Shown: positions 5,105-62,278 of the stretch, in pieces
Layout of the letters: each line of letters begins with the position of its first letter
How positions within the stretch are numbered: position 1 is the stretch's first letter
Source: Neckera pumila
Lineage: Eukaryota > Streptophyta > Bryopsida > Hypnales > Neckeraceae
Length of the DNA: 64,000 bases
Direction of reading: 5' to 3'
NCBI GenBank assembly: GCA_963969595.1
Contig: OZ018409.1
Location: 22,352,975 to 22,416,974 of the forward strand
The notes under the pieces: model-generated
What the model saw: only the letters and a program-made list of their open reading frames with translations
Databases searched by the model: none
What the model was told of the DNA's origin: nothing
Position numbers and translations under genes: made by a program

Positions 5105-8100
5105 TACTTGGAGGTTATTGTGGTACATGTGACATTACTATAGGATGTGTAGAAGTCCGGTTATAGGGTGTGTTTGTTTTGAAAGTGTCGGTAGATGTTG
5201 GAGTGGATTTTCTATGTGTTGTGTGGATTAGATCTCTGAAATGAGAAGGTATTGGTCATGCCTTCAGTATCATTTCAATTTCCAAAATAAATTTTTGTAA
5301 TTAATGTGATTTTCTGTTGTTATTGGCATAAGAACAATATGATATGATTGTAATTGCAAGTCATTGTGTTGAAAGATTGAAATATAAAACCAAAAAAAGT
5401 AATTGAGATAAGACAAACATGTATTTTTTACTTGTTCAGCCCTAAAAGTAATCTAGAAAGCATCCCCATACAAAATCCGTATGCACAAGTGGAGCACACA
5501 AAGATGTCAAAAAAACAAAGCATTCTTAAAAAGCTTGGAGGTACTCAACTTTTCAAAAAAAACATTTTTAATGAATAGTAATACATACGGTCAGTGTACT
5601 TGGCCAGGTGCAAAAATATCTAATTCTGTGTTCTAAGTCTTTAGGATTTATTTTTAATTTTCAAATCAAAGTGACAAATAATACTTGAGTAGGACAAAGT
5701 CTTTTAAAATTCTCAAAAATAAATGGAGAGGTTTTGCTAAAATAAATGGAGAGCCATTATTTTTCATTTGTAAAATTAAAATAAAAAATAATTCATTATT
5801 AAGAAGACTCTTCAAAAATTGCAAAAAATGGAGAAAAAAGTTTTTATTTAAACATCCATTCAATAGTTTAAATTTTTAAATCACTATAACAAATAATACT
5901 TGATTTGGATGAGATTTAGAAAAAAGCTCAAAAATAAATGTAAAAGTTCAAAAATGTATGTAATCTTAACCTACATTATTCAATAATTGTTTTGATCATA
6001 TTCAAATTTTGGGCATATGATAAGGACTAAAAGTGGTTGTAAGAGTCCTAAGGCATCAAAAAAAAGTTCCATTGGAAGAAAGTACCTAGAAAATGGATGA
6101 ATGCATGCATTTGTTGCAAACAAAAATATTACATATAAGGGCATGTTGGTTGAATCTTCATTTATAAATTGAATCTAAGACTATTAAAGGTTATTTTTGT
6201 TTATTTACATAACATGAGCCCAAAGACCTCTTTTCTATCAAAAGCCACTCAAAATTGCCATTTCAATTGCAAAGAGGAAAAAACTTTAAAAAATATTTTC
6301 TTACATATCAAAATACAAGATCTTGTATTACACTAGTATAAAAATGCAAGGATAATTCTTAGAAACTTTGATTGTGTAGATTGCAAGATATTTGCAGTTA
6401 AAATGAAGAAAGCAAGACTTTTTTACACCTTGTTTGACTGGATTTTTTGGCTTCAAATCTTCTTGACTTCAAATTTTTGCACTATTGATTTTTATTTTTT
6501 ATTTTTTTATGTTGAATAATTGAGTTGAGAATCTAAAAAAAAAATTCAACAAAAAAACACTTAAATTTATTCATTAAATTTTTCAAAAATAGAAGTGGGT
6601 TCAAGATTGAAGGTAAACTGTTAAAGGCTTTAAGATGGAATTGAAACATAATAATTTCGACATTGAGATTATCCTAGCAAAGAAAGTTAATTCTACCTAA
6701 TAATTTTTTTATAAATTGTAAAGATTGCATTCAAAAATGAATTCTATAAGTTATTTTTTCAAGAAGATGCGTAGATTGCCCAAAAGACAAGGTTGTCTAT
6801 ATCTTTATCATTACTAATCCAAACAGAATGAATCAAAGCTTCCAATGTAGACAAAAGTATAATCTTTGAGAAAAATTAAAAACCCAATCAATTCAGTTTT
6901 TTGTGATTTTTTGGGACTTGCCCTGAAGTTGCATTTTAGACTCAGGTTGGAATAATTTTTGCTTATGGGCATTGGTTGAAATAAAAATTGTATTATTAAA
7001 TTGCTAATTAAATTTCCTATTTTGAATTTTTTTTTAAGAAATCATGTCAAAAATATATATCACATTGTAAGCCTACCTAAAATCCCAAAAGTCTTTTGTA
7101 GGGACTTTGGGACTTTAGGGATTAAGTAAATCTAAGCACTAGTTACAATTTCAATATCTCTTTCTATTGTAAATGTGTTAATTGGTACCAATTATTGTTT
7201 ATTTTTGTGTCTATATATCACCAACTTGCTACTTGGAAAATGGGCCGACTATAGTACTACTATAAGAAAATTGAGTAAAAAATTATAGTATATTGCCATA
7301 ATCATCCTTTGTCATTGGTACAAATGGCTAACAAGTTTATAGAACGCTATGTGTTTTTAATAAAATATTGTAAATTGCCAAAAATGCAAAAGTTGTGATG
7401 GGGATTGTGAGAAAGAATGGAATGAAGAAAAGCTTGGATGCAGGTGCAACTCCGATTGTTTTGAAAATATTGTTTAAAAAGAAGAACCCATTATGCTTGT
7501 GCTCTCCTTTGTGCAACGGGAAAGCAAGTCTCAAAGATAAATGAAGTGAAAATGCAATTGGAAACTAAATTGGCAATTTCACAGGAGACAAAGTTGGAAA
7601 CAACACATTGATAGATTGGACAGCTATGTACATATGCCTCAAGTGCATATGTCCTTGTGTCTTCATTTTTAGGCGTAAAGAGTCTACGTTCACATACCCT
7701 TGAGTATGCCTTTAAGTATATTGCACTTCCGGCTACATCAATGCACATGAACTTCTGGTTTACCATTACCTCAACTACCTCCCACCAATGGGAGTTGCAC
7801 ACATATGTACATAGACACTCAAGTGCATATGTCCTTGTGTCTTCATTCCCTTCCTTGACCCTCCTTCCCTCCACTCCTTCCCCCCTCCACTCCTTCCCCT
7901 TCCAAAGCCACCATCCCAATGCAATTCAAAATAAGAAGTATTTCCTTACATATGTCATGAACTTGTCAACATTTCATTTGTTATAGTTGTTTCTTTTCTT
8001 TTTCTTTCCTTTCCCCTTATTTTTTTCTTTAAAACCATTTTTTTTCCTATAGAAATGATGATTATTCCAACCACTTTCACACACATGTATGTCTTCTGGA

Positions 8101-15345: not shown

Positions 15346-16540
15346 TAAGCTTAAATTAAACAAACTAGAACACGCTGTAGAGTACGTGTGACTGATAAAT
15401 ACTCCATATTATTCAGTCCAGGCTTGATCAATGATATAAGCTTATTGTTCTTCTGGTTATATATATTCAGTCATATGTCTGCCAGGGTTTCAAAGGGCCA
15501 AAATTATGTCCTCGATTGCACAGATTCGAGCTAGCTGCAAAAACTGTGACCCTTATCAATTTTGGCTTCAAACAGGTGTGTGAAAAAAATTGCAAATCCC
15601 TCAAAGGGTAATCTTTTGAATGAATATGACAATAAAGTTAGGTGCTTGAAGTATAGACGGACGTCCATACTTTTTGTTTGCCATTATAGGACATTGCAAG
15701 CCACATGGGCATTTTGAAATTCAAAACCTGATTGTTCACATACTTAAGTATTGTAGTTCTTCATTTTAAATGTTTTTAAGTTTAACTAAGGAAATGTAGC
15801 TTCAACAATTGACAATTTCCTCCATTTTAATTCTTTTTTTTAATCTTTAGAAATTCCAATTTTTGTGACACATTGAAGATAGCATCTTGAAAGCTTAGAA
15901 TGCACCCCTTTTTAATTGTTTCTATTGAATTCTTCTTAGTGTGAGCTCAAGGTGTACACCAATTTAACCATCATGTTTGTGACTATTATTTCCATCTTTC
16001 TAAAAATTTCATTAGCTTTTAAGCAATTTTGTAATTGATACGATTTCACAAAGAAGTTTCTTTAGAAAATCATATAAAATTCAATTAAGTGATTTTAATT
16101 ATGAAAAAATGAGATTGTGGTGCAGTTTAATATATACTACTACATGTGAAAAATGTCAACTATTTGCAATGTGTGTATTTATGTAGAAATTAAATGAAGT
16201 TTGACCAAGCAATACATGAAATGTTGCAATGTTGCAATGTTTGCAATGTTTTAGGGTTAACATTCACTCAGCAAAACTTTGATAGTCGATTGACATGTCT
16301 AGCTGTGGTTTAATTCTAAGGCAACTGTCTCAGTTTGGCCAAATAATTAATTTAAAGATTAAACACACTCTTTGCGACGAACACATTTGCTTAGTGAGTC
16401 TTGAATGTACTTAATTAACTTATTGGAGTTCATTGTGTAAAACTTGTAATCACACCCATGTTTTAGTGGTACATGTATCCAGATTACGTCTGGAAGCCTC
16501 ACAAATGAAGCCTGAGCGGCAAGCGCCGTTGACAGTGTAG

Positions 16541-24276: not shown

Positions 24277-26955
24277 TTCATTCATTCATTTATTTATTTA
24301 TTTTTAATTTATCATTTTTTGGGCTATTTAAATACATAGCAAGGGATATATACAAAAGAAATTTTGTAAAATCAATATCATTTAACATCTAACATTCTTC
24401 TTTGAGGATTTAAAAGGAAGTGAAATTACATAACACATATGAGATTTTAATGAGATTCTAATGAGATTTTAATGCTTGTCAAGGTAATTATAGAGGGTCA
24501 TTTGTAGTGTGTGTAACACTAATTTACCAAAATTGCACTATTTTGAAATGGTGCATACTGTGTTGCATCAATTTTCACATTAATTCAATTTTCTATTGAT
24601 GCTAAGTTTGTAGGTGATCTAAGTAATCCCCCTCATTAATAGGAAAAATTTATTTATCTAGAATAACCAACTTTTACATTTAAAAAATAAATAAATAGAA
24701 TTCTAATTAGAAGTGTGGAATACTTATACAAGGATAATTGGATTTTTTTATTGACAGGATTTTTCAAGAAGGCTTGTAAAAAGCATAAGAGAAAAGGTTT
24801 TACCTTTTACAAAAAATATTTTTTAGCATTGCACTTAAATTTTTGGGTTGCTTTTGTTTTAACAACAAGGCCAATCTACTTTTCTAATGTAGTTTTTTTT
24901 TACTTGTACACAAGTAAAGGCATTATAAAATTGGACAAATGGAATTCCAACTTTAGAAAACTTGACAATTTGTTGAGATTCTGACAACTCATGGAAGTTA
25001 TCTTAGAATGCAATAAGAGTAGAGTTTGAAATTCGTTAATTGGAAAAGATTACCAAGCCAATATTTCAATACTTAGCAAATTCTGGGTAGAGATTTGCAT
25101 ATCTTAGTTTTCTTCTATGGTCAATTGTATGTAGTACTTTCTCAGACAACATCCATCCATTTTTTGAAATTGCTTCTTTTTGAACATATACCAAAAATAA
25201 TGAACATTGTGTATTCGAAAGTTTTAATCCGCAAAGGACCAAGCTCCATCAGTTTTTGGCAACATAGTGGTTTTAGGCAACTTATTATAAATGGAATTTT
25301 TATTGTTTTTCTATAAAATTTTCACACAATATGGGCATAAGGTTTTTCTTTAAGACCCAACAAGTTTCATAGCTTTTGACTACATGGTTAAAAAGTCATT
25401 GTATGATATATGTAATTTTTTTCTTTGGCCAGGCAATCTAGGCAAATTTAAAAAATCACTTTTTTCAGAAAAAAATTTGAAATTGGTTTTCTGATTTATA
25501 TATTATGGAAACTTTGAATCATTCCATTTTGATCAATGAGATGAAAGTTATGAGGAGTTTTAGATAGCAGGAAGTTAAGGATTATCTACTCTAAAATAAA
25601 CTTTCAAGTCCTTTATTTAGTTCAACTTTTAGTATTTTGGAGAAAAAATAAAATTATAGGATATAGATTGTTTATCACAACATTACAACCATTGATTAGC
25701 ATTTTTCAATTCTATAACTAAATTCTTGACAATTTTGTATTTTGAATCATTCTCTACTTTTTTCTATTTATTATTTTTTTTTTCCCTAAATGTTGTACAA
25801 TTCCAAATGATCTGAAATTTTTCAAGCATGTATCCAACTTGCTTCAAAGAATGAATCCAAAGAAGCATCACCATTTTTGACATTTTTTAATACAAATGTG
25901 ACCTTGTGAAGTGCAGCTCCCCTTTTTTTTGTATGGTCTAAAAATGGATTTTTGTCAATTCAAAAGCAAGTTCAAACGCTAATATCTTGCAATCCACACA
26001 ATGGAAAATTCTGAAACTTTTTCCACATCTTCTCATAGTAGCATACTATAAAACCTATGGTTAGATATTTCTTATTTTTTTTTCTAATATTTGGTAATTG
26101 TGTTAGAAATGGTAGTTTTGGAGAGTTTTTGGTGAAAACATAGTCAAGGAAATTTAGGCATTAATATAAATTCTACAAATGGAATCATTTCTTAGATTTC
26201 TTTTCATCTATGACTCTAAAACAAACCTCTACTAATGTTAAATCACCATGGCCCCATTTTTTAAACATGTGATTAAACAGCTTCAAATTTTTTTAAATTA
26301 AACTATAGATAAATTCTTTAAAATTTAAAAAAGAAAAAAGACTAAATTAACATAGAAATTGGGCCAACAATACAAGGCTACCCTTGTCTGTACTTTAAAT
26401 GAGTTTGTTTGTTTGTTTATTAAGGTGAGATCTTTTGGACTATGAGTCTCTTAATTGCATTCTTGATATCATTGGAAAGCTTGTGCAAGGAGGGTTGCAC
26501 GAGCTTTGCATCATAGCATTCCAGCGTGCGAGCATTCCGGCGTGCAACAAAAAAGATATTGAATTTTAAACTTTTTACAAATTAAAAAATTAGAATTTTA
26601 TTTAGTTATTTTTTAATTACATTGTAGCAACAACACAGGGCACACTAGTTCGTAGTTATTCTAATACCATGGTATTAATAACTACTATCCCCAATTTGCT
26701 TTAAAAAAATACATGCTATCTTTTGAAAAATTTGTTAATGTAGTTCATGCAACCAAAAAATGTTCAAAAATATATATAAATTTAAAATATATATTTTTTA
26801 TTATCAAATTCAAATTTCATTGATGGTATTATTTACATAGATAAATATTAGAAAATCAAAACTTTTGGATTAAAATGATTAATTCAAGAGATTTGATTGG
26901 TTTATTATCATTCAACATTAATAGATACTAGTGTGACCCTATGCCGTTGGCCCAA
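23440..26955. other. AT-rich intergenic DNA with microsatellites
   Basis: A (TA)n run at about 24173-24201 is followed by poly-T and a long (TTTA)n tetranucleotide array to about 24303, with a few TTCA variants. The open frames at 24148-24392 are produced by this array. No gene was recognised elsewhere in the stretch. Confidence 0.75.
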
Positions 26956-27745: not shown

Positions 27746-30700
27746 ATATACATTGGTGCAAGTCTCTATGTATTTTCTTTTAGATCCGACTATGTGAACT
27801 TTGAGATCATTTAAACAAATCTAGAATCACAATTGTAAGATCTAAGGCATCATGATCATCTAAATTTCTTTTCAACCTATTTCAAATAATTAGGAAAGAA
27901 AAATGATTCTAGAAACCAAATAAATCATTATTTTTTTGGCCATTTAGACTTGTTGTAGACTTCTAACTCCAAAAAGAATAGCATTCACATTGATCTCAAT
28001 GTAAACTTGACTTAGACCTCAATTAATTCTTCATTCAATTACAACCAAAAAGGTTTGAGTGGTTCCTTATTCTAATTTTAGTAAAAAACAACTTGTAAAT
28101 GGAAGAATGGCTATTGTTTCAATGAAAAATGGACAAATTTCATCCATTTTTTATAACCTTAATTGACAATACTTTCACATCATTATATGAAATTTAGGTA
28201 ATTTTAGATATCTTTTGATTCTAAATAGAGTTCCATGATAAAAGTGACATATTGATTAGTGAATTTTAGCACTAAGGTCATTTTTCCTAAAATTATATTT
28301 GAATTTCACCATGATCTTTCTTTCATTTGAGCCAAATTACTTAAATGAATCTTATCAACTATAAATCCTACTTTACCTCAAGACATTATAAACTTCTTCT
28401 AAAGGCACACTTTACTGCAATTTGAGTTGACTTCCTACAATTACATTTTCAAATCTATATTGACATAAATTTTATTTTATAGTATAATGTACGAATGCAA
28501 TAATTTTAATGACCCTGAGTTTAAACAAAAGGATAATCCTAACTTCCAAGATTATCAAAGAACATTCAGAGAAATTGAGGTTTAGGAGTCATTTTTGTTT
28601 ATCCTTCCATTTATAAGCAAGCCTTGAAAAGTTGCATACACTATAGAAAACAATGGCATGTTTAAATAGCAGCCAATAAAAATTCAAGAGTTTTTGAGGC
28701 AAGAAATTTGTTTGTAAATTTATTATGAAATTTCAAACATAACACATTAATGACAGTGTAAACAAATTGAAAACTAAAAATGTTATTTTAAATAATTAGA
28801 AACATTTAAAATTTAGTAAAATATTGAATATTTAAAATTATTAAAAATTAAATATCCTAAACAAAAACTTGAAAGTTTGAAATTTTAAGTGATTTGAACT
28901 TCAATTACAAGAAAATATGACACAATACAAAATGAAATGTTAAAGAATGGAATTCAAATTTATTTTACTTTTTTATTTTATAGGATCAGCTATTGAAGTT
29001 TGAAGTTGAAGTGAGAAAGAAGTAACCTCAATTATTCTTAAATTAAACAATACTCATCTTGCCTATAATGGTAGTATTTACCTTAATCAATTCAATGAAA
29101 TTTTTGAATGAATAATCAATTTTAAAAACTCAATTAATTTAATTTATATATTCTCTACCTTTGTGAAAAGAAAAAAGTCATGTAATGAACACCCTTAAAG
29201 GTATGTTCTCACTTGGCTGTATGAAAGAGTGGTTTCCAAAAGTAAGAACCCTGCACTGTTTTCCAAGAAGACTCCTTTACACATGCACAACTACTTACAA
29301 CCCTAGGCATCACTTTTGTACAAAAAAACTAGTTAAATGAGTTACATTATGAAGAAAGAATGAATCAAATAATTACATTAGAATGAAATCATTCTAATTT
29401 CAATAGCAAAGTACTGTGTTTTTAAACATTATAGATTTAATATATAGCTTGTGTATATGTATGAATTAAATTGCGTCAAAAATAAACAAAGTAGTTGTCA
29501 ATGAAAAGGTAATTATCTAGTGAGACTCTTCCATCCAATTCCTATAGAATTTTAATTAAATCCTGAAGACATATCCCCTAATAAAAATAAGTGACTATAT
29601 ACAAATAGAAATGAATAAGATCATAATTGTAAGACCAATCATTTTGTAAAAGTGTTGGAATACAAAATATATACAAAGGCCTTTTTAGCAACCAAAGAAT
29701 ATATTTTAGTTCACCAACCAAAATCTTTAGAAAAAAAAGTTTAAGAAAAAGACTACCAACTTATTGAACTACAATTACATTTTAAAAGTTAATTGAGAAA
29801 TGAGAATTAGAATTTGCAAATTTATTTATAAATATACTCTAAAAATTTATTTAAAATTTATAAAGTTTTAAAACTTCAATAGCTTATCAACGGTGGCGCA
29901 AAGAGCATTATTGTCCTAGTTTTAATTTTTCATTTAATTAATCCCTGAAGGACTTAGGAGACTATTTTAGATTTTATAAGAATTTAGGTAGGCTCTGTTG
30001 AATTTGAAACTTGGAATATAAATTATATGATAATTTTAGAATGCATCACAATTGTTCTAATATATGCATAAAACTTTATTTCACATCATTCCAATAAATA
30101 TACTACAAGAGTTAGAATTTTTTTTAATTTCAATGTCAAATTTGGCATTTAAAAATATATTCCAAAAAAAATTAATTAAATTTATGGGATTGTATCATTA
30201 GAAGATGAATGGAGCTTGAAGAAGGCCACAAACTTAGAATAAACAGTGATAATACTGTTGCACTAGAAAACCAAAGAAAAACAAATAAAAACACGTCCTA
30301 GCTAGTGAAATTTTAGCTAACAAGAGATTTCAGTTTTTCAATTATTCAATTATTCAAATTTGCTTAGAAGAAAAACTAAACAAAACATTATTATTAGTTT
30401 TTTAAAATACATTTCTAAAGTATCTTAAATTTTTTTTAAATTCAACAATTGAATAGTATTTCACTGGTGTTCTAGTTTTGCAACCTTTTTTAAGCCCCAT
30501 TTCTCTTATAATGAGAGTGATACCTATTCAAAACATTTGAACCATTCAACTTAGAATAATGAGTTGAAATTATGAAGAGGTTTTTTTAATGGGCAATGAA
30601 GATAGAAAAAATGTATATAGTTGTTTTTTGAACAAAATTTTGAAATTCAAAAAAGAATAAAGAAGAGAAAAGGTACCCATTGTCTATTAGAACATTCTTA

Positions 30701-33700
30701 ATGTTGATACTAACTATTTTCAATTTTTCTTGTAATTTTTCTAGTAGCTTGCAGTTTAGTTGCTTCTTTCTTTCAATGCCAGCTTCTATTTTATAGTTTT
30801 TTTAAAGATGAATATGAGAACTTTTTGGTTTAAATTAATTACATATATTTTCAAATAATGTTTCAGTATATTGATTAAAAGACATGAGTTATGGGACATG
30901 ACTTATTTCTCCTACAAAATTTGAAAGACAAAATTTTGCCTTATGTAAGGGCTAGAAGAGCCTACATTTTGAAGTTTAGGCACATTGAACTTGGAGCTAA
31001 TGAAAATATTTACTCTAAGTTTTGGAAGGATGTATTTAAATAAGTTGACTAAAGGTTACTATAATTGAGTTTGCTAAGAAATAAATATGGATGAAGATTT
31101 TAGCAATGCTTTGAGGATGAGTGCTTTAAAGCAATTTTGGGCCTTAACATCAAAGAACTTTAGCCCTATGTTAAAAATAATTATAGTTGACTTTAGAATT
31201 TTGCATTCTTTTACAAATTCAACTCTAAAAGATTATTATAAACTTGTCATTATAAAAGATGAAAATTTATTAGTAAAAAGCATTTCTAATTTTAGGAATA
31301 ATATTTTATTTTAGAATATTTTTCAATTTTCAAATCAAAGCTTTTGTTTAGATGTAATTTAAATTCAAAATCTACAACTTTTGTTTACAATATGCCTTTC
31401 TAGAATTTGGAATCAAATAGTGAATCAATACATTTAGGAATCATATATTTAGTTTCTTGAGCGTCATTTTTAGTCACTTGGATGTTTTCATTTAGGTTGA
31501 TAATGACAATATCAAAGGATGCATGTGTCATCTTAGCTGTAGGTGCATGCAGTCAATCCAAATTCAACAAGACACATCTATTTTAAAATCATCTCAAACA
31601 ACATTAGGCATATATATATTAGATATTCAATATAACTTGTCATCTCTATTCAATGTTTCATTGCCACCTCCTTAGAATGGACTCTATTGAGGTATATGAG
31701 CTTGGAGAGTGCACTCCCATTTTTTTGGCAATCAAATGAAGGATTATAATAATTACCTTGGTTCTAAATTTTAAACATGGTTTGGAGGTAAATTAGCATC
31801 ATCATAATTGGTTTAGGGTCTTTATAAGTAATGAAGGTTAGTGAAAGATAAAGAGTTTTATTTAATTTTACTTAAACAATAGCTTTGCCAAAAAAATAAC
31901 ATATATATAATTTTTTGGAAATGCTTCTTGTTTTATGGTATATGGCATGTTTAGTATATAACTTTGTAAAGAGTATCCTAGGTGGAATCCAATGTTGGAA
32001 CTTGTCAGATTACAAGTCAAATTCCAATGGATCTTATTGCTATGGCAATTGCAAGAAATGAAGGTACAATTGTGATAGGTGCGCAACTAGCTCTAGAAGC
32101 TCTTTGTAGATTAGAGTTTGGCTAGTGTTGATTGGTAGACGATAGTGAGAATTGCAATGGATTTTGCAAACAAATATTGATGTGCATTATAGTAGATATT
32201 TGGAGATAGCCGGGGAGCAAAATTTGGATTTTGCTTCTAGCTTTCGAACTTTTTTATTTATTTATTTGAACAAATGGGAAACCTATTGCATTAAAAAGAA
32301 ACCAAAGAATAACAACCAAGCCAAAACAGCTGGACAAAAGAGCCGAACAAGAACGGAGCTTCTGGACTTTTGAGCATATCGAAGCCATACTACAAATAAT
32401 TACTCATATGCACCTCTAAATTCCGTATACCTGCAAACATCCATTATAATATATGCACTTGTGAATGATGTTGTAGTACGTTTTTTTTTACTTACATTGA
32501 TGGAATAGAAGGTAAAAACTTCATATGGCAGTTTATAGTGAGATTGGTGCAGAGTCAGGTGCCCCCATATGGTCAGAATGGTGTGTTTCATATGGTGAAA
32601 ATTGCGGCATTAAAGTGCATACGTCAGAAAACCAGAATTGGTATTGATTTGAAGATCTAGACAAGCATCTGGAAGAATGCCAAGTTCTTGGAATTCTACC
32701 AATCAATCGTAATTAGAGCTCTAAATTAATTTGGACACTGTAAAATATGTTTTTGTTTTAACCAATTCAACTAAAAAGATTGATTCCACATTATAAACGC
32801 TGCAACCAATATTGTCATCCTTGTTAAAATGGCCAAGTTTCAGAAGATTTGTACTTTCTAGACACTACTATGCTAAGTGCTTGTGCTTGAAATTTGTTTC
32901 AATTTGAAAGTGTTTAGTGCTTGAATCCACTTTTGATTTCAAAGTACTTTATCTTTGCAACTAGGTGCTTGAATCCACTTTTGATTTCAAAGTACTTTAT
33001 CTTTGCAACTAGGTGCTTGAATTTCCCACTTTTTACTTTGTATATCCATTTTTATATGTGCAGTTTTCAAAGATGAATTTTCCTATGACCCCAAGCACTA
33101 AGTTAGTGTTTGAAAATAAATTGCCGATGTTTTAAAAGAACATAGGGTATACAAAAATAGCACTAAATTTATTTTTTAAATTAAATTTAGGGTACATGAA
33201 ATAAGAAAAATTTAGAAATTTAGGTAAACATAGCCCTATAAAAATTCACAAGATTTACCTACATAGCCCTCATGTAATAAGAGCTTGGTCATACGGTACC
33301 AATAAACACCCTATATAATGCACCTCCCAAGTACGTGAGTTCTAACATGAATAAGCCTTTGACATTGGACCAAAAAGAAATGTATGCTTAAAAATTAATT
33401 GGCATAGAGTGCCAAACACTACTTTGGTGCTACACGAAAAAATATAGTACAGTCCGCACAACATTGGCATCAACCAAAGACTCTAATTGTTTATTATTTG
33501 GAAGTTAGTTTGGAAATACTATATCATAGGCAAGTGATTATCATGGCATTGCAGAGTCAAGTATAAAGAGACATGCACTAGTAAAAAGTGGCAAGGAAAG
33601 CATAATTGCTCAATAAAAATTCAATTCACTTGAAGAGTGCATTTACAATTTGGTCAATTTACAATAATATGAAAAAATTGCTTTACAAATTAAACATGGC

Positions 33701-39540: not shown

Positions 39541-41295
39541 ATTCTAAATGTTCTAAGCCTTAACTAGTAAGAAAATGTAGCTGCATTCATCTACTTTTTA
39601 GTTCATTCTATTTTATTGAAAAATTGTAAGAAATTGCAGTTCTGGTGACATTTTGAAGGTAGCATTTTGAAAGCTTAAAATTCACCACTTTTGATTTTTT
39701 TCTATCAAATTTTGCTTTCGTATAAGCTTAACCCTAAAGGATCGGGCGGGTATTCAAGCATAGTCCTTGTTTTCTTAAATAGCTCTTATAACAAGCATAA
39801 TTCCTCATTTGTGTGGAATAATTTTGATGATCGCCACTGTTGATATGAAATAAGATTTATTTAACTTTTCTATAATAAATAAAAATCAATAAAATTGCAC
39901 AATTTTTGAGAAAATGCCATCGTTGATAAGATTGATGAAAGATGTTCAGTTAGGGAGTACTTTGTATATATGTTGAAATCAAAATTTTGAAAGTGGAATG
40001 CTCAAAAAAGCTCCAAAATCTTTGATTCTTTTCCCACATGTGCGTATCATTATAGTATTGATGTGTAACTTTTTTCAAATAATTTTGAGGTGTAGAAAAA
40101 AAGATATGAGAATATGAAGTAATGGCCCACAATGCTTCTCCCATTTTCAAAAAATTCACCAAAAATTGATCACACTCAATCATTGCTTGATCACATTGCA
40201 CAAACGAATTTAGTAGAGAAAATCATCTAAGGTCTTTTTATTGCTTATAGACTGTTAGTAAGGTTATTTTGTCAAGTTTTTTACAAATGTAGTGGTAGAA
40301 GCCATGTGCTGGTTGCTAGATTGTAAGTCGAGATCATAAAGAGCATAGTTACTACAAGTAGAAAGTAGAATTAAGACAATGGATTCAAAGGCATTCAAAC
40401 TCTCTTCTTATAAATAACCCAAGATACATAACCATAGTGCTAGCCTTTTAAGGGTTAAGATTGAATTAGATAAGGTAGTCTTATAAGGTAGGTACTCTCC
40501 AAACCGCCCCCTTTTGCTTTTGTGCCTAGGTATTATTATTAGACTAGTCAAGTTTTCATATTTTCTTGTTGGAAAGTGAAAAGATGTTCCAACGCACAAG
40601 TACATTGATTACACCATGACGTTTGTCACTATGATTTTCATTTTTGCTAAAATTTTCATATTCTTTTAAGCAGTTGTGTAACCACTGTGATTTTTATAAG
40701 GAAACCACTTTAAAAAATCATATGAATTTCATTTTGATATATATTTCATTTTGCAAAATGAGTCTCATTTAAAGATATATAATACTACATGTGAAAAATA
40801 TTAAATTGTTGAAGGGTGTGTTTTAACATGGGAAGCTAATGAAATTTGACCAAACGAGATTGATAAGGAATGTCTTTTAAGGGATACATTTGCAGAAAGA
40901 GCCCAATCTCCTTTTGTAGCCATTTTTAGAATGCAACATAGGTTTGAGATTTGGAATAGACTTTCCGATATAAACCACCAACAAATTGAAGTGTTTTTCT
41001 GTCTTCTACCTCTATCACATGACAACAACAATGCTAACATGTGAGCCTAGAAATGTATGCCTACAAGCCTTGAGCCTAGGTGTAAGAAGGTACTCTACAA
41101 CCATTAAAGGTACCTTTGACATAGGTACCTTATAAACATGGAAAATAATTATGACAAAGGCACCTATAATATAGATACTTACAAGATAAATATCCTATTA
41201 TCATGACAAGGCCTCCAAAATTCTTAACATTGGCGTGTTCTGGATGGAGCGTTGGACAAAGCTTGGCTTACTAAGGGCAATTTTAGAGAGTAATG

Positions 41296-43508: not shown

Positions 43509-43625
43509 TTATGAAAGCACATAGTTCACAGTAGATCATATTGTCATCATCAAACTTCAAACATTATCATACTACTAAAATCATAACTCCCTCTGTAATA
43601 TCACAAATGCTACCATTAATAATAA

Positions 43626-45008: not shown

Positions 45009-45103
45009 GCCTTTATTAAGAAGATCCATCTAGAAAATCAATGCCTTGCCTTGCCTGGCTCCAACGAGTATGCACTCTGCAATTGAAGTAGGATTGTGCC
45101 TGA

Positions 45104-45183
45104 CTCGACATACATTGTTGTGGCGCTGCACCAGTCAGGTCTGACTGCCTGACTGGTGCAGCGCCACAACAATACATGTCGAG
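45104..45183. repeat. Near-perfect hairpin, 36-bp arms, 8-nt loop
   Basis: The left arm 45104-45139 starts CTCGACATACATTGTTGTGG and continues to CCAGTCAGG. The right arm 45148-45183 is its reverse complement with two mismatches. The loop is TCTGACTG. The length and pairing are compatible with a small-RNA-producing foldback or a recent inverted duplication. Confidence 0.93.
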
Positions 45184-46009
45184 TTCGGCAATTACATAAC
45201 TCCATAACTTTTGCTGTCAGATGTGGCTTTGCAAGCTGGCAACGTACCCGGTCTCGATCCGTCGATATATCCAATACCGGTAGTCCAATCTGAACTTCAT
45301 AACTTTCCAAGAATTTACAATTCATAATCATAATCGCAGAAGCTGATCAAGACCTTTAAACTTGCATGTCAAGCTCTTGACCAAAGTATGGAGGCCTGAA
45401 GCATCTCTCTCCAATTTGGACTTGACCTGGCAGGATCAAGTTGCTGTTCTAGTGATGAAATCGATTTAGGCTAAGCTAGGTCCGCGACGTTTCCAATTCT
45501 AAAGATTTATTTCTTTTATTTTCTTAAAACAAATGAAACGAAAATTGGCCGTCTAGTTTGTCTTCTGCTCGTCTTGTCCATCTGTCCATCGTTTGTGAAG
45601 TTCTTGCAGTGATAACTTAAACAGAGAGACAGTACATTATAGTGAACAAGTTCAAGCGTATTGATGCCATGACCAACTGATGTCTCTGTATCAAGCAAAA
45701 AGGGACCAACTTTGCAACAGTTCAATTTGAATTATGTTAAACAATATGTTAAGAGTGCCTTATCAAGCTAGCACTTCATACTCCTCTAGAGTGCAATGAT
45801 GCTTGTGCACCATGGTCATGGCCGGTATGTAGTAACTTAGTGTCCAGAGGCTAATTGAATGTAAGTTATTGGTCCAAGCAGAGGCCGTGGTTGGGATAAG
45901 AGGACCGATGGGGTCTTCTTCAAGTCATATAGTGAAGGAATTTTAAAGCAGGCAGGTCATTGAGAGCAGAAAGTAAACAATAACAATAATAAATTTACAA
46001 ACAAACAAA

Positions 46010-47204: not shown

Positions 47205-47390
47205 TGTCAGAGCTTGTAGGCCAAACCTAAGAGCGGATGTTTTTCCCGCCTATGGGAGCCGGCCAATAGTGCCTCCCGTGCTCAGGCGTGTGAGCTTCTT
47301 TTACAGGGTGGAGCTGATGTACTGGCCGGCAATAGAGCAGGCGAGACTCCCCTCTACCTTGCAGCCTTGAGAGGGCATTCTGCGCATCAT
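47205..47390 (+). pseudogene. Ankyrin-repeat gene fragment fused to a TTAA element
   Basis: The plus strand encodes SGCFSRLWEPANSASRAQAC followed by ELLLQGGADVLAGNRAGETP and LYLAALRGH. This is an ankyrin repeat with the hallmarks GADV, G-x-TPLYLAA and RGH. It has a stop shortly upstream and no ATG. At about 47389 the sequence switches abruptly into the interior of the TTAA element family. It is therefore a captured or truncated exon rather than a gene. Confidence 0.7.
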
Positions 47391-48127
47391 GCTCACAATA
47401 AGCAAAAATGGAGTTCGGCAGGCAGCACAAAAAAAATCACAAAAAGTCAAAATATTTTTTTTTTAATTTTTTTTCTCAAAGATTATATTTTGTCTACATG
47501 TGAAGCTTTCTTTTATCCAATTTGGACTAATAATGAGAAAGTTATGGACAATCTTAGTTTTTTGGGCAATCTAAGCATCTTCTTGAAAAAATAACTTGTA
47601 GAATTCATTTTTCAATGCAATTTTTAGAATATTACACAAGAATTTGTTAAACCGGGTTAGGTTTTTGTGCTAGAACAATCTCATTGTTGGAATTATTGTG
47701 ATTCAATTCTGTCTAAAAGCTATTAACAATTTAGTTTTTTCTTCAATCCACTTCCATTTAAAGAAAATTTAATGAGTGAAAATTAAATGTTTTTTTCCCT
47801 AAATTCTCAACTCAACTACTTAACATAAATAAGTAGAGAACCAAAATCAATAGTGCAAAGAATTTGAACTAAAAAGAAATAAAGCCAAAAAATCTAGTTA
47901 GGCAAGGTGCAAAAAGACTTGTTTTCTTCACTTTAAATGAATATATTTTGGAATCTACATGGTCAAAGGTTCTAAAAAGTTTTCTACGTATTCATATATT
48001 AGTCAAGTATAAGATCTTATGGTTGGATATGCAAAAACAAACAATTTTTAAATCTCTTTTCTCTTTGCAATAGAAATGACAGTTTTGAGTGGTTTTTGAT
48101 AGAAAAATCACCTTGGTCCTTTAGGGG
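47389..48127. mobile_element. TTAA element, 5'-truncated copy (d)
   Basis: It matches the interior and right end of the element at 60689-61605 (CACAATAAGCAAAAATGGAG, TTTGGACTAATAATGAGAAA, CAATCTCATTGTTGG...). It ends with TGGTCCTTTAGGGG followed by TTAA (48128-48131). The left part is missing and replaced by the ankyrin fragment. The right flank (TTAA then ACAATTTTGTAACCACTATG) corresponds to copy A at 40666-40685, where TTAA is followed by GCAGTTGTGTAACCACTGTG. Confidence 0.78.
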
Positions 48128-48288
48128 TTAAACAATTTTGTAACCACTATGATTTTACAAGGAGATCACTTTAAAAAATCATTTGAATTTCATTCTGATA
48201 TATATTTAATTTTGCAAAAATGAAGCTCAATTTTAAATATATATTACTACATGTGAATAATATCAAATTTGTGAAGGGTGTGTTTTAA

Positions 48289-49207
48289 TCCCTAAAGTTT
48301 CATGACTATGTAATCATCAAAAACGCTCCAAAACTGCCATTTCTAATACAACTACCAAATTTTGGGAAAAAAACAATTTTTGACACATGTAACCGTAGGA
48401 TCTTGTAGTATGATATTTTGAAAACATGTGGTAAAAGTTTTAGAGAATTCCGCCCTGTGGACCATAAGATATAAGCATTCAAAGTCTTGAAAACCATTTT
48501 TTCAATCCTGCAAAAAAACGGGCAGTTGCACTTTGCAAGGTCACTTTTCAATGAAAAATGCCGATAAAGGTGGTGCTCCTTTGAATTCAGTTCCCTAAAC
48601 AAGTTGTCTATATGCTTGAAAATTTTCACATCATTTGGAATTGTACAACATATAGGAGAAAAAGAGTAAGGAGAAAAAAGTAGAAAATGATTCAAAATAC
48701 TAAATTGTTAAAAATTTAATTATGGAATTTAAAAATGCCAATCCCAACGGTTGTAATGTTGTAATAATCAATCTACATCCTAGGTTTTTATTTTTTTTCC
48801 AAAAATATTGAAAATTGAGTTAAGTAACAACTTTAAAGCTTTTTTTAGAGTAGAAAATCCATAATTGCCCGCAAAGCAAACCCCCTCATAACTTTTGACT
48901 CATTGATTGAAACGAAATGACTCAAATCTTTTTAAGTATGTATAAACGTAAAAAACCAGTTTCAAAAAAAATCTTGGAAAAAATGATTTTTTCTTATCTG
49001 CCCAAATTGCCCAATTACAAAAAAAGTAACATATTAGGTCACAACTTTTGACTCGTATTTTGAAATGTCATGAAACTTAGTACACATGAAGATATTCCTC
49101 ATCTCCACATTCTATTAAAGTTTTAGCCTCAAATATGGATCTCCCTAGTCACACGTACCTGCCAAAATTTCTATGCGGCCAAAAAACGCATGTTGGTCCT
49201 TTAGGGG
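48289..49207 (-). mobile_element. TTAA element, full-length copy (e), with empty site in copy A
   Basis: It runs from TCCCTAAAG to CTTTAGGGG and is flanked by TTAA at 48285-48288 and 49208-49211. The orientation is opposite to copies (a) and (c): its left part (AAAACTGCCATTTCTAATAC) is the complement of the right part of (c). Copy A at 40811-40840 reads GTGTGTTTTAACATGGGAAG, with a single TTAA and no element, which shows precise insertion at TTAA. TTAA duplication with CCC(C)T termini fits piggyBac-like (or Kolobok-like) non-autonomous transposons. No transposase is encoded. Confidence 0.85.
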
Positions 49208-50069
49208 TTAAAATGGGAAGCTAATGAAATTTGACCAAACAAGATTGACAAGAAATGTCTTTCAAGGGATACATTTGTAGAAAGAGACCAATTCCCTTTT
49301 GCAGCCATTTTCAGAATGCAACATAGATTGGAGATCTCGAACAAACTCTTCGATATAAACCACCTAAAAATTGAAGTGCTTTTCTGTCTTCTACCTATAT
49401 CGCATGACAACAACAATGCTAACATGTGAGCCTAAAAATGTATGCCTACAAGCCTTGAGCCTAGGTGTAAGAAAGTACTCTACAACCATTGAAGATACCT
49501 TTGACATAGGTACCTTATAAACATGGAAAATAATTATGACATAGGCACCTATAATATAGATACTTACAACATAAATATCCTATTACCATGACAAGGCCTC
49601 CAAAATTCTTAACATTGGCGTGTTTTGGGTGGAGCGCTGGACAAAGCTTGGGCCAACAATAGCCCACTAAGGGCAATTTTAGAGAGTAACTAGCAACTTT
49701 GCCATTGTAACAATAAATTGTTGCTTTTTCTTTCCTAAAACGAAATGCTAAACATTTCAGACATTGGATAGACATAGATCCATTACTAGCAATGTCAACA
49801 TCTACATAGTCATCGATTGTAAACAAAGCCCAAGCCATAGTCTACAAAAGATGACAATCTTGAATCCTAAAACTTGTACTTTAGAATGTAGAAACTTTTC
49901 AATCACAAAAAGAAAATGGGTTTAAAATTGCACCTATATAACTTGTGCTCCAAAAATATACACTGCTTGATTATGCTCCACCTCACTCCAAATTTTCTGT
50001 CTCCTAACATCCATAACACATCAACATATATTCAACAACAAAATTTTGGATGTTGGCATCAATTTCAAA

Positions 50070-52080
50070 ATTTAAGTCAAATTTGGCCAAATTGATCAAA
50101 TTCAAATTAATATGCATCAAATTGATCAAACCATTGAAATTATATTCAATTGTTTATGTTTGCATCAAAAAATCTTAAAGTTATTCAAATTCGATTCTAA
50201 GTAGGACAAAGTACTGACATTAGTTAACATTGTATTAATAACATTTGACTCATTTTATTCAAATGAAACTTATATTGTCCAACTTAGATCAAATGATGTT
50301 CAAATTGCTCAAACTAGATTAAATTATTGACATTAAGCTCAAATTAGGTCAAATTGCTCCAAATTATACTTAACCCCTAAAGTCCCATTGTCCCCTCGAG
50401 GGACAAATCAGATTTTGGGCAGGTACCTACGGGCTGAATTTTTGTTGTGATTTTTTGAAAACTTTTTGTGAAGATAGAAAAACTGCTAAGCTTCGTGGGA
50501 ATATAGTTTTTTTTTCCAATTGGTGTCTGGGAGCAAAAGTTATACCACAAAAAGCCTCAAACCGAACTCGGCGGGTAGCAAATTTTTTTTTGCAAAAAGT
50601 CAATTTTTTATTTTTTATTTATTTTTCTCTGAAAGAATATATTTTTGTCTAAATCTGAAGCTTTGACTCATTCCATTTGGATTTGTTATGAGAAAGTTAT
50701 GGACAATCTTAGTTTTCAGGCACTTAGAGCATCTTCCTAAAAAAAATAACTTGTAGGATTCATTTCTGAATGCAATTTTCACAATTTTTCACAATTTTTT
50801 TTGAGAATGTTGTGTTTGCTTGCTTAAACAATCTCACCGTTGGGATTATTGTATTTCAATCCCATCTAAGAGCTATTAACGATTTAGTTTTTATTTCAAT
50901 CTTGGACCTACGTCTGCTTAACAATTTTTTAAAGAATGAAGATCAAGTTTTTTTTCTTTGAAATTTTTTTCCTAGACTCTCATCTCACATCTTCAACCAA
51001 AAAAATTTTAAATTCAAAGTCTATAGTGCAAAATTTTTCCACAAATGGCGGTCAAAGTCATCTGAAATTACAGGCCACAGTTCAAAAAAGCTTCTTTTTC
51101 CAACTTCAAATGCTAATATCTTCCAATCCATACGGTCAAACTTCATGAAATTTTACCACATGATCTTTAACAATTGAAGTACAATATTCTATGGTTAGAT
51201 TCTAAAGAAATGACCTTTTTTTGTGTTCTTGGATGAACGCAGCAAAAATGGCAGCTTTGAGCGGTTTTTGACAGAAAATTGGCCTTAGGACTTTAGGGGT
51301 TAAATTGCTCACATTAAGCTCAAATTGCTCACATTAGATCAAATTGTTGACATTAAGTTCAAATGAGATTACATTACTCCAAATTACACTCAAATTGCTC
51401 ACATTAAGTTAAATTGTTGACATAAAGCTCAAATTAGGTTACATTGCTCCAAATTACACTCAAACTGTTCACATTAAGTCAAATTGTTGACATTAAATTC
51501 AAATTAGGTTACATTGCTCCAAATTACACTTAAACTGCTCACATTACACTCAAATTGTTCACATTAAGCTTAAATTAGGTTATATTGCTCCACATTACAC
51601 TCAAATTGCTCACACTACACTCAAATTGTTGACATTTAACTCAAATTAGGTCAAATTAGGTTACATTGCTCCAAATTACAATCAAATTGTTGACATTAAA
51701 TTCAAAATAGGTTACATTGCTCCAAATTACACTCAAATTGCTCACATTACACTCAAATTGTTCACATTAAGCTCAAATTACACTCAAATTGCTCACATTA
51801 AGCTCAAATTGTTCACATGAAATTAAATTGTTGACATAAAGCTTAAATTAGGTTATATTGCCCCAAATTACACTCAAATTGCTCACACTAAGTGAAATTG
51901 CTCACATTAAATCAAATTGTTGACATAAAGCTCAAATTAGGTTGCATTGCTTCAAATTACACTCAAATTGCTCACATTAGATGAAATTGTTGAAATTAAA
52001 CTCAATTTAGATCAAATTGCTCACAAATTGCTCAAATGAAGCTTATACTACTCACCTTAGATTAAAACGATCCAAGAATG
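50070..52080. repeat. Degenerate CTCAAATTGCTCACATTAAG minisatellite, split by a TTAA element
   Basis: Dozens of units of about 20-26 bp vary on CTCAAATTGCTCACATTAAG, AAATTGTTGACATTAA and TTACATTGCTCCAAATTACA. The array runs about 50070-50369 and 51304-52080. The interruption is exactly the element at 50374-51299. No unit is conserved enough, and no spacers are distinct, so it is not a CRISPR array. Confidence 0.85.
50374..51299 (+). mobile_element. TTAA element, full-length copy (c)
   Basis: It runs from CCCCTAAAGTCCCATTGTCC to GGCCTTAGGACTTTAGGGG and is flanked by TTAA at 50370-50373 and 51300-51303. The length is 926 bp. Removing it with one TTAA rejoins a minisatellite unit (AAATTATACTTAAATTGCTC against the array word AAATTACACTCAAATTGCTC). 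The interior is shared with copies (a), (b), (d) and (e). No protein-coding capacity is visible. Confidence 0.86.
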
Positions 52081-52549: not shown

Positions 52550-52680
52550 TATACTTCTGTAATATCACATTTTCACACTGTGTGATATTACAGAGGCGCA
52601 GTGGCCATTAAAACTCTGTAATATCATACAGTGTTAAAATGTGACATTATAGAGGACCTTGTGATTTTAGTAGTATGATG
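52550..52680. repeat. Nested inverted repeats of CTCTGTAATATCAC
   Basis: CTGTAATATCACATTTTCAC is followed by the inverse GTGTGATATTACAGAG. CTCTGTAATATCATACAGTG is then followed by AATGTGACATTATAGAG. The same word appears in family X elements (43598, 43840, 57005, 57250), so it is probably a small MITE or TIR remnant. Confidence 0.55.
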
Positions 52681-55340: not shown

Positions 55341-55657
55341 CCACCTCACTTGGTCCACCCCACCCCATTACAATTACCATCATCCGCTCCCACATAGACG
55401 CATTCATTGGCCTGACCGCTTGAAAGTACCGTAGTACCTGAAATTCTTACAGTTGCAGACTAATAAGTATCCCTGGATACGGGTCAAATAATATGGTACA
55501 CTAGCTTCGATCAATCATCATAACTTATCTACGTAAAACAATTTCTCATGTTTGGGGGGAATGGCTCTCCATCTCTCAATGAACTGGAATTGAACTACTC
55601 AACCCCTAAATGCCCAAGGCACACCCAAATCTGGTGTTTGCAAAACTTTGAAGTTAA

Positions 55658-56180
55658 CCCCGAAAGGCCCAGTTGTCCCCTCAGGAGACAATTTGGGTTT
55701 GGGCAGGTTCTTATTGCCTCAATTTTTAAAATTATTTTTTGGGATTTTTTGAGATTTGTGTACTTTTGCAAGAGCTTTGTGAACACATAAATTTTTTATT
55801 ATAATTGATGCCAAGGAGCAAAAGTTATAGCACAATAAGCAAAAATGGAATTCGGCGGGCAGCACAAAAAAATCACAAAAAGTCAAAAAAAAAAATCAAT
55901 TTTTTGACTCAAAGAGTCTTTTTGTCTACATGTGAAGCTTTGTTTCATTCAATTTGGACTAATAGTGAGAAAGTTTTGGACAATCTTAGTTTTTTGGGCA
56001 ATCTAAGCATTTGCTTGAAATAATAACTTATAGAATTCATTTTTGAATGCAATTTTTAGAACTTTTTAAATTTTTTGTTGGATAGAGTTAGATTTTCTTG
56101 CTAGAACAATCTCACCGTTGGGATTATTGTGATTCAATTCCATCTAAAAGCTATTAACAATTTAGTTTTTTCTTCAATCA
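55658..56180 (+). mobile_element. TTAA element, 3'-truncated copy (b)
   Basis: It starts after TTAA (55654-55657) with CCCCGAAAGGCCCAGTTGTC and follows copy (a) until about 56180. There it jumps to sequence equivalent to 61866 in copy 2, so the right TIR has been deleted. Confidence 0.75.
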
Positions 56181-56592
56181 TGAATATATTAAAAAAATGA
56201 ATTTACAAAGGAAAAGATTGAAGACAAGGAAAATGATTGGGTGGGATAGGCTGGTAATTACACTAAATGCAATCCAACACTAAACATAGTTTTTGGTGTA
56301 GTAGTTTTTATATTTAAGTTTTTATACAAGGGTACCCATTGCAATCTTGACTTCCCATAGTGTTGAGAACTCTTGGAAATGAGCCTCAAATACACTAGAT
56401 CTTGGAGAAAAAATCACATTCAAAATTCATGTAAAGAGATTGTAGAGTAGATTTTAAGAAGCCATAAATTGATCGAGGTTATACAAGCTAGGCCCTTTAA
56501 TCTTATATATTTTTGGTCACCAACTTTTTAGATTTGACTTGTGTAAAGAAGATTGAAAGATTTTTGCAATTTTAGCACCCTCACTAGTGGTT

Positions 56593-57236: not shown

Positions 57237-57547
57237 TATTATTAATGGTAGCATTTGTGATATTACAAAGGAGTTATGATTTTAGTAGTACGATGGTCAA
57301 ACATTACAATCTTTCACTCTATAAGTGATATTGTTGTGTTTTGTTTTCCCATGAGATTGTTCTCTAAGATGTCCAGTTTAAATTTTTACGGTTATTTTTC
57401 CAAAAAAATTGATACAATTTATCAAAACATTGGCATTTTGTTCAATTTAGAACAAATTCTAGGAAGCCCAAAATAGGTCTTGGACATTCAGGGGTTAATT
57501 TAACTTGGATGGGGGATTTGTTCTGCCAAGGGCTTGCTCCGATCCCT

Positions 57548-60080: not shown

Positions 60081-60688
60081 TTAGTTGAAAAAAATAGTTT
60101 TTTATTGAAACAATTTTTTTAATTGAAATCTGACATTGGCCCCAAGGCCAAGATTTGGCCTCCCATTTTTGGTGCACCCAATTTAGCGAGCTCGGGCCAT
60201 GTCAGATCATGTCTTTTTTGAATAAAAAATTCAATCCACCAAAGTGGCCCAGCCTCTTGGTGTAAAGGGGTTGGGTTTAATTTGAGCCTTTTGTCCAATC
60301 AGAAGTCACGATTCTTGACCTTTGACACAAGAAATTGGCCCGACTGCTTGACAATGCCGTAGTACCTGAGATTCTTACAGTTGCAGGGAGACTGCAGTCT
60401 GTAGCACCGGTGCAGAACCTAAATCTGGATTCGCCACGTCTGCTGCTGAAGTGTCAAATTCGCGTCACCGAAATCACTATAGTAGGGTGACTAATAAGTA
60501 TCCCTGGATACGGGTCAAATAATATGGTACACTAGCTTCGATCGATCATCAGAACTTATCTACGTAAGACAATTTCTCATGTTTGGGGGGAACGGCTCTC
60601 TATCTCTCAATGAGCTGGAATTGAACTACTCAACCCCTAAATGCCCAAGGTACACCCAAATCTGGTGTTTGCAAAACTTTGAAGTTAA

Positions 60689-61605
60689 CCCCTAAAGGAC
60701 CAGTTGTCCCCTCAAGAGACAATTTGGGTCTGGGCAGGTTCTTATTGCCTCAATTTTTAAAATTATTTTTTGGGATTTTTTGAAACTGCGTACTTTTGCA
60801 AGAGCTTTGTGAACACATAAATTTTTTATTTTAATTGATGCCAAGGAGCAAAAGTTATGGCACAATAAGTAAAAATAGAATTCGGCGGGCAGTACACAAA
60901 AATCAAAAAAAGTCAAAAAAAAAAAGCAATTTTTTGACTCAAAGAATCTTTTTGTCTATATTTGAAGCTTTGTTTCATTCAATTTGGACTAATAATGAGA
61001 AAGTTATGGACAATCTTATTTTTTTGGGCAATCTAAACTTTTGCTTGAAATTATAACTTATAGAATTCATTTTTGAATGCAGTTTTAAGAACTTTCAAAT
61101 TCTTTGTTGGATAGAGTTAGATTTTCTTGCTAGAACAATCTCACCGTTGGGATTATTGTGATTCAATTCCATCTAAAAGCTATTAACAATTTAGTTTTTT
61201 CATCAATCTTGAGCCCACCTCTACTTAACATTTTTTAATGAGTGACAATTAAGTTTTTTTTTCCTAATTTTTTTTGAATAGATTCCCAACTCAACTACTT
61301 AACATAAATAAGTAGAAAATCAAAATCAATAGTGCAAAAAACTTGAACTGTGAAGATTCAAAGCCAAAAAATCTAGTCAAGCAAGGTGGAAAAAAACTTG
61401 TTTTCATTACTTTAAATGAATATATCTTACAATCTATGAGGTAAAAGTTTCTGAAATTTCTTCCACATACTCATATGCTAGTCAAGTATAAGATCTTATG
61501 GTTGAATATGCAAAAACATACAATTTTTTAAACTCTTTTCTCTTTGCAATAGAAATGACAATTTGGGGTGGATTTTGGTAGGAAAATCACCTTGGTCCTT
61601 TAGGG
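60689..61605 (+). mobile_element. TTAA element, full-length copy (a)
   Basis: It runs from CCCCTAAAGGACCAGTTGTC to CTTGGTCCTTTAGGG and is flanked by TTAA at 60685-60688 and 61606-61609. The length is 917 bp. It has the clearest terminal inverted repeat of the family (CCCCTAAAGGACCA). The interior is AT-rich, has poly-A/T runs, and no ORF longer than about 75 codons. Confidence 0.85.
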
Positions 61606-62278
61606 TTAAATAAAATCTAACCAAGTTTCTGTTTTTAATAATTTTGTTTTCAAAAAGTTCTTCTTGAAGTCTAATTTTAGCACCAAAAATCCGATCTTGG
61701 AAATAAATGCTACACTAAAAATTGTGTTTAGTATTAGCAACACTATTTACGAACCATGACACTAAATATCATTAAGCTTACTAAAGTAAATAACATTAAA
61801 TGTACTTTCTAACACAAAATATATTCTATGGTAAATCTGAAATCCAAAAATGTTTACATTTAGTGTTAGAACATATAAAAAAATGAATTTGCAAAGGAAA
61901 AGATTGAAGACAAGGAAAATGATTGGGTGAAGTGGGTTGGTAATTACACTAAATGCAATCCAACACTAAATATATTTTTTAGTGCAGTAGTTTTTTCTAT
62001 TCAAGTTTTTATACAAGGATACCCATTGCAACCTTGACTTCCCGTAGTGTTGAGAACTCTTGGAAATGAGCCTCAAATACACTAGATCTCGGAAAAAAAA
62101 TCACATTCAGAATTCATGTAAAGAGATTGTAGAGTAGATTTTAAGAAGCCATAAATTGATTGAGGTTATACAAGCTAGGCCCTTTAATCTCACATATTTT
62201 TGGTCACCAACTTTTTAGATTTGATTTGTGTAAAGAAGATTGAAAGATTTTTGCAATTTTAGCACCCTCATTAGCGGG

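What the first reader, a model, noticed from the sequence alone, without database searches (positions are those of the whole stretch)
48285..49211. TTAA-flanked transposon with its empty site preserved in a paralogous duplicate
Copy B of a duplicated unit has a 919-bp element bounded by TTAA at both ends. Copy A (40811-40840) has the same flanks with one TTAA and no element. This directly demonstrates precise TTAA-targeted insertion after the duplication. TTAA duplication plus CCC(C)TAAAG termini is the signature of piggyBac-like (or Kolobok-like) elements, which I believe are unusual in land plants. The family appears undescribed to me.
Basis: partly seen in the sequence, partly recalled or inferred. 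Interest (0 to 1): 0.75.

Follow-up and report, generated by a model that had tools for sequence, protein, structure and literature searches.

The report
TTAA-inserting transposon family, likely in moss
What is probably a moss genome carries a family of roughly 920-base mobile DNA pieces, unable to make their own enzyme, that sit precisely between copies of the letters TTAA, as animal piggyBac elements do; such elements are seldom reported from land plants, but the enzyme that moves them was not found.

Summary
A 919-bp body (48289-49207) lies between two TTAA copies; paralogue A has the same flanks with one TTAA (40823-40826). It is not a single case: a family profile finds seven strong copies (9.3% of the window) in two subfamilies about 50% alike. 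The four complete copies (E1, E2, E3, E7) have TTAA at both ends and bodies of 917-933 bp; 11 of 12 examined ends of the seven copies carry TTAA. Two more insertions have empty-site evidence: the right end of neighbour E5, empty in paralogues A and C (one-sided), and E2, inside a tandem array whose units match its joined flanks over 250 bp. A second element type (39728-40458) has the same kind of ends. No coding capacity was found. One gene places the host among mosses. Best reading: non-autonomous cut-and-paste elements moved by a piggyBac-type transposase encoded elsewhere. Kolobok is disfavoured: no end shows its RR..YY termini. Membership in piggyBac is not proven: no transposase was found, the own-genome search did not complete, and the strict terminal motif is met at only 1 of 11 ends. 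New member of a known kind, in an unusual host lineage.

The parts
48285..49211 (-). E1, the reported element: TTAA + 919-bp body + TTAA (subfamily 1)
40811..40840 (+). Copy A: empty site of E1, single TTAA at 40823-40826
40666..40669 (+). Copy A: TTAA at the site of the E5 right end
16019..16208 (+). Copy C: third paralogue (15954-16208 is 70% identical to copy A); lacks E1 (TTAA eroded) and keeps TTAA (16019-16022) at the E5 site
25224..26164 (+). E7: complete copy, 933-bp body, 73% to E1, TTAA at both ends; found by homology only; its own two termini match at only 7 of 14 positions (counted by eye)
50370..51303 (+). E2: complete copy, 926-bp body, TTAA at both ends, termini match at 13 of 14
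51304..52060 (+). Right part of the tandem array (unit about 70 bp) in which E2 sits; the joined E2 flanks match array units over 250 bp at 80.6% with 4 gap positions
60685..61609 (+). E3: complete copy, 917-bp body, TTAA at both ends; 13 bp CCCTAAAGGACCA at both ends, with one more C at the left end
55654..56187 (+). E4: duplicate of the E3 insertion (93% to E3), right part deleted together with adjoining flank
47386..48131 (+). E5: copy with its left end missing; right end on TTAA (48128-48131); that site is empty in copies A and C
6206..7125 (-). E6: copy with TTAA at its 7125 end; other end degenerate (profile match stops at 6210, envelope at 6206)
30529..30811 (-). Weak partial relative (E = 1.1e-12)
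39728..40458 (.). Second element type, not matched by the family profile: 723-bp body, TTAA at both ends, imperfect gapped termini CCCTAAAGGATCG / CCCTTAAAAGGCTAG; in a stretch of copy A that copy C lacks (comparison there is not clean). Found by eye, no statistic

Best explanation
The thing is one copy of a non-autonomous class II (cut-and-paste) DNA transposon family, most likely in a moss nuclear genome. Shown: non-coding bodies of 917-933 bp with short inverted termini of the type CCCCTAAAGGACCA, set between TTAA copies, with single-TTAA empty sites. Inferred: a transposase encoded elsewhere binds both ends, cuts the element out and joins it to a staggered cut at a new TTAA, as piggyBac transposases do. 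Superfamily piggyBac is the most likely source of that enzyme.
For: Seven strong copies; TTAA at 11 of 12 examined ends. Three insertions with empty-site evidence: E1 against A and C, the E5 right end against A and C (one-sided, the left end is missing), E2 against its tandem array. Termini: of the 11 TTAA-flanked ends, 7 start CCC, 2 TCCC, and the two ends of E7 start TCCG and TGCC. TIRs of 13-14 bp in E2 and E3 fall within the 12-19 bp reported for piggyBac (PMC2872659, passages; C-rich terminal motifs also in PMC10813416 and PMC12732532, passages). A second element type in the window has TTAA and CCCT ends, as expected if one kind of transposase serves several families. Non-coding: 41 of 55 alignment gaps in five pairs are not multiples of three and no Pfam match was found in the frames scanned.
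Against: No transposase or autonomous partner was found; the own-genome search did not complete (16 tries). The reported motif CC[C/T]T stands at positions 1-4 of only 1 of 11 ends (E3 right); 6 of 11 read CCCC there. Termini of E7 agree at 7 of 14 positions, of E1 at 10 of 14. Sequence alone cannot tell a 4-bp TTAA duplication from a 2-bp TA duplication at a TTAA target. E6 has one degenerate end. TTAA-flanked inverted pairs are at most mildly in excess when no base filter is used.
Confidence: 0.7

Rival explanations
1. The same kind of mobile element, but moved by a Sola-type transposase (Sola3 is TTAA-specific, from recall; no call showed it).
For: Sola1 is listed for the moss Physcomitrella in a review (PMC9033089, passages); a fern paper tabulates 2,739 Sola repeat hits (PMC6890710, passage).
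Against: C-rich ends are the pattern reported for piggyBac. No Sola terminal motif could be checked: the Sola paper PMC2727372 is not held.
Confidence: 0.14
2. A Tc1/mariner or PIF/Harbinger element with a 2-bp TA or 3-bp TTA/TAA duplication and a strong taste for TTAA.
For: The product of a TA duplication at a TTAA target has the same sequence, and TTAA on both sides also contains TTA and TAA; these superfamilies are among the five to which plant MITEs are mainly assigned (PMC12550479, passages). E3 has ends that differ by one base, as a 3-bp rule would give.
Against: All four complete copies have T before and A after the central TA on both sides, which TA-only targeting does not explain; the ends of E1 and E2 are symmetric only under a TTAA or TA rule.
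Confidence: 0.09
3. Kolobok-superfamily non-autonomous element.
For: TTAA duplication (PMC9587614, passages).
Against: Kolobok termini are 5'-RR and YY-3'; of 11 TTAA-flanked ends here, 10 start with C or T followed by C, one (E7 right) starts TG, none starts RR.
Confidence: 0.03
4. The A/B difference is a precise excision from A, not an insertion into B (concerns the history, not the kind of element).
For: TTAA-specific piggyBac and tagalong elements excise precisely (title of Fraser 1996 seen in the reference list of PMC8634313), so an empty site can be a former filled one.
Against: Copy C lacks the element too, so excision would have had to happen twice, or the insertion to postdate the split from C and be lost from A.
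Confidence: 0.1

Closest known systems
piggyBac/TTAA MITEs, coral CMITEs (PMC2872659, passages seen)
   Same: TTAA duplications, C-rich 14-bp termini (one coral family also starts CCCCT), a pair of alleles with and without the element, an internal region shared between families
   Different: Listed coral lengths are 96-108 bp; these are 917-933 bp. For one coral family a related piggyBac-like transposon was found; here none.
piggyBac superfamily, autonomous (PMC10813416, PMC12732532, passages seen)
   Same: TTAA target, terminal CCC, short TIR
   Different: No transposase here; the host is probably a moss, while the beetle paper gives animals, fungi, protists and occasional plants, naming red algae
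TFP3/tagalong, a TTAA element of a moth (PMC8634313, passages seen)
   Same: TTAA insertions of the piggyBac kind
   Different: Moth host; its sequence was not compared
Kolobok superfamily (PMC9587614, passages seen)
   Same: TTAA duplication
   Different: Kolobok termini are RR..YY; here 10 of 11 ends start YC
Tourist- and Stowaway-type plant MITEs (PIF/Harbinger, Tc1/mariner)
   Same: Non-autonomous, non-coding, AT-rich target
   Different: Duplications of 3 and 2 bp (recalled; TA for Tc1/mariner also in PMC5199201, passage); these copies keep TTAA on both sides

Membership tests
non-autonomous class II TIR transposon | several dispersed copies with fixed ends | tested here: met
   7 strong copies, 4 complete
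non-autonomous class II TIR transposon | target-site duplication with an empty site | tested here: met
   E1 against A (and C, eroded); E5 right end against A and C, one-sided; E2 against its tandem array
non-autonomous class II TIR transposon | no coding capacity | tested here: met
   41 of 55 gaps not multiples of 3 in five pairs, little or no three-base periodicity of mismatches; no Pfam match in six frames of E3, two plus-strand frames and one ORF of E1, one ORF of E2. The 133-aa open frame of E1 is reached in only 3 of 200 shuffles, but the longest in E7, its 73% relative, is 62 aa
piggyBac superfamily | TTAA target-site duplication | tested here: met
   11 of 12 examined ends
piggyBac superfamily | 12-19 bp TIR | tested here: met
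   met in E2 (13 of 14) and E3 (13 bp exact with a one-base offset); weaker in E1 (10 of 14) and E7 (7 of 14, counted by eye)
piggyBac superfamily | terminal CC[C/T]T motif | tested here: inconclusive
   at positions 1-4 in 1 of 11 ends (E3 right) and in the second element type; 6 of 11 read CCCC (5 of them CCCCT), 2 read TCCCT. A coral family accepted as fitting also starts CCCCT (PMC2872659)
piggyBac superfamily | piggyBac-type transposase in an autonomous partner | not tested
   own-genome search unanswered in 16 tries; no Pfam family in stop-filled six-frame scans of 34001-64000, but those scans also missed the AT-hook and ankyrin matches, so they are a weak negative; 1-34000 was not scanned this way
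Kolobok superfamily | 5'-RR..YY-3' termini | tested here: not met
   0 of 11 TTAA-flanked ends start RR; rule from PMC9587614 (passages)
PIF/Harbinger | 3-bp TWA duplication (recalled) | tested here: inconclusive
   TTAA on both sides of four complete copies contains TTA and TAA; symmetric ends of E1 and E2 speak for four bases
Sola3 | TTAA duplication plus Sola transposase (recalled) | not testable with these tools
   no transposase; Sola paper not held

The most novel reading that the evidence does not exclude
Mosses host their own piggyBac lineage, active long enough to leave several families of unusually long (about 0.9 kb), length-conserved non-autonomous elements that make up a noticeable share of the genome (9% of this window): a part of the land-plant mobilome that plant MITE surveys built on five superfamilies would not have counted.
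Probability: 0.4. Interest if true: 0.55.

Novelty: new member of a known kind. Interest (0 to 1): 0.42.

Why it matters
TTAA-specific elements are well known in animals but little discussed for land plants: a 2025 survey of 207 plant genomes (four of them bryophytes) assigns plant MITEs mainly to five superfamilies and its text has no occurrence of TTAA or piggyBac (PMC12550479, find in text); the land-plant review PMC9033089 has no occurrence of piggyBac, Kolobok or TTAA (find in text). If the family belongs to piggyBac, part of the unclassified repeats of mosses could be assigned, and a native plant transposase with clean excision might be found.

Tried and rejected
Own-genome search for more copies and an autonomous partner: the same request was sent 16 times, each time answered 'busy'. 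Hence copy number, genome-wide consensus and partner are unknown.

Similar DNA in plasmids with E3: none. An 18-base terminal pattern in viral contigs: none. Neither collection should hold moss DNA, so these say little. Rfam: no match in the window at gathering thresholds, none in 60600-61700 at E up to 0.1. ARAGORN: no tRNA.

Considered and rejected: a coding relic; a lone element.

TTAA pair scan against other AT palindromes. Without a base filter, at 11 of 14 or better: TTAA 24 pairs among 562 sites, AATT 43 among 1006, TATA 8 among 468, ATAT 12 among 559. That is at most a mild excess for TTAA, and only one of the 12 TTAA rows shown is an element of this family (E2). With the start [CT]C[CG], at 8 of 14 or better (the printed heading says 9): TTAA 10, AATT 1, TATA 0, ATAT 1; with [AG]G[CG]: TTAA 4, AATT 4, TATA 1, ATAT 8. 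The first filter was chosen after seeing the elements, several of the 10 are cross-pairs between copies, and E7 and the second element type are not among the rows.

Slips: one script failed for want of a program name and was rerun. One search gives the right 919 and 933.

A protein search with an animal piggyBac transposase was considered and not run, because insect hits would probably have filled the list. Two of three protein searches stayed unused.

Full report
The reported element. Positions 48285-49211 hold a 919-bp body with TTAA on each side; copy A at 40811-40840 has the same flanks and one TTAA. Self-alignment of the window gives two A/B blocks that overlap by exactly TTAA. The left boundary reads GTGTTTTAA|TCCCTAAAG, the right boundary CTTTAGGGG|TTAAAATGGG.

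A family, not a single case. BLAST of the first-found copies against the window found the others. A profile built from seven copies and run on the window returned those seven plus one weak partial match: E1 48285-49211, E2 50370-51303, E3 60685-61609, E4 55654-56187, E5 47386-48131, E6 6210-7125, E7 25224-26164, and 30529-30811. The seven built the profile, so their profile scores are not independent; the BLAST matches are. The seven cover 5,927 bases, 9.3% of the window. E1 and E7 (73% alike) form one subfamily; E2-E6 (64-93%) another; between the two, identity is 49-52%, yet BLAST joins E1 and E2 at E = 2e-23, and the four complete copies, from both subfamilies, have bodies of 917-933 bp.

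Ends. TTAA is at 11 of 12 examined ends; the miss is one degenerate end of E6. E4 is a duplicate of the E3 insertion, so 10 of 11 independent ends. E1, E2, E3, E5 and E6 were first found with patterns containing TTAA; the two ends of E7 were found by homology and still fall on TTAA. Of the 11 TTAA-flanked ends, 7 start CCC (6 of these CCCC, 1 CCCT), 2 TCCC, 1 TCCG and 1 TGCC.

Empty sites. (a) E1 against copy A; copy C, a third paralogue 70% identical to A, also lacks E1, though its TTAA has eroded. (b) The right end of E5: homology of B with both A and C begins exactly at TTAA, while A and C go on matching each other further left (40600 with 15954). The left end of E5 is missing, so this is a one-sided test. 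(c) E2 sits in a tandem array; its joined flanks match array units over 250 bp at 80.6% with 4 gap positions.

Second element type. At 39728-40458 lies a 723-bp body, not matched by the family profile, with TTAA on both sides and gapped ends CCCTAAAGGATCG / CCCTTAAAAGGCTAG. It lies in a stretch of copy A absent from C, but A has about 140 further bases there that C lacks, so the empty site is not clean. Part of it matches 14144-14399 at 74%. It was found by eye and carries no statistic.

Non-coding. Mismatch rates at the three positions are even for E1/E7 (0.261, 0.286, 0.270) and E3/E5 (0.170, 0.179, 0.159), less even for E3/E2 (0.338, 0.365, 0.272), E3/E6 (0.318, 0.271, 0.319) and E3/E4 (0.087, 0.066, 0.060); 41 of 55 gaps in these five pairs are not multiples of three. 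The 133-aa open frame of E1 is matched in only 3 of 200 shuffles, but the longest frame in E7 is 62 aa. No Pfam match in six frames of E3 or in the parts of E1 and E2 scanned. Stop-filled scans of 34001-64000 found nothing, but they also missed the weak AT-hook and ankyrin matches.

Host. An AT-hook ORF at 36854-37222 (minus) found six proteins: the best, 96% identical, comes from an unnamed JGI source; the only one with an organism name, at 65%, is Ceratodon purpureus, a moss. Sphagnum is my guess from the JGI source, not a result. One gene places the host; a second was not tested.

Mechanism. The anatomy shows a cut-and-paste element that depends on a transposase from elsewhere. piggyBac is the best candidate: TTAA, short TIR, C-rich termini (PMC2872659, PMC10813416, PMC12732532; passages only), with the reservation that the strict CC[C/T]T start is met at 1 of 11 ends. 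Kolobok fails on termini (PMC9587614, passages). Sola and TA- or TWA-type elements remain possible.

What is known. The beetle paper calls plant occurrences of piggyBac occasional, for example red algae; another paper's abstract names plants among its sources (PMC10813416). The C-fern paper tabulates 1,230 PiggyBac hits, so a land-plant report exists in a repeat table. The Sphagnum genome paper gives about 30% repeats, with unclassified 7.8% and CACTA 6.8% as the most abundant types (PMC9946827, passages). Two whole-word searches, piggyBac with mosses and transposable elements, and piggyBac with bryophytes and transposons, returned no paper; the library holds open-licence papers only.

Noticed in passing
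window 4600-4776 and 13423-13576: Two foldback elements starting CACTAGTA and ending TACTAGTG, CACTA-MITE-like; the first is flanked by ACA on both sides.
   Followed up: partly
window 45097-45190, 52556-52653, 59969-60058: Three further palindromes of 90-98 bp (81-91% self-match), possible foldback elements; not classified.
   Followed up: no
window 55406-57547 and 60334-63235: Direct duplication, about 95% alike over most of its length; one copy lacks 656 bp across the right half of the TTAA element and its flank.
   Followed up: partly
window 43566-44273, 56583-57294, 62272-62982: Segment of about 710 bp present three times: the first copy is inverted and about 89% like the other two, which belong to the direct duplication. 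Identity unknown.
   Followed up: no
window 47220-47400: Ankyrin-repeat-like coding stretch, below Pfam's cut-offs, running straight into the broken left side of E5.
   Followed up: partly
window 57481-57498: TTAA-adjacent right-end-like motif (reverse complement CCCCTGAATGTCCA) with no convincing left end; may be chance.
   Followed up: no
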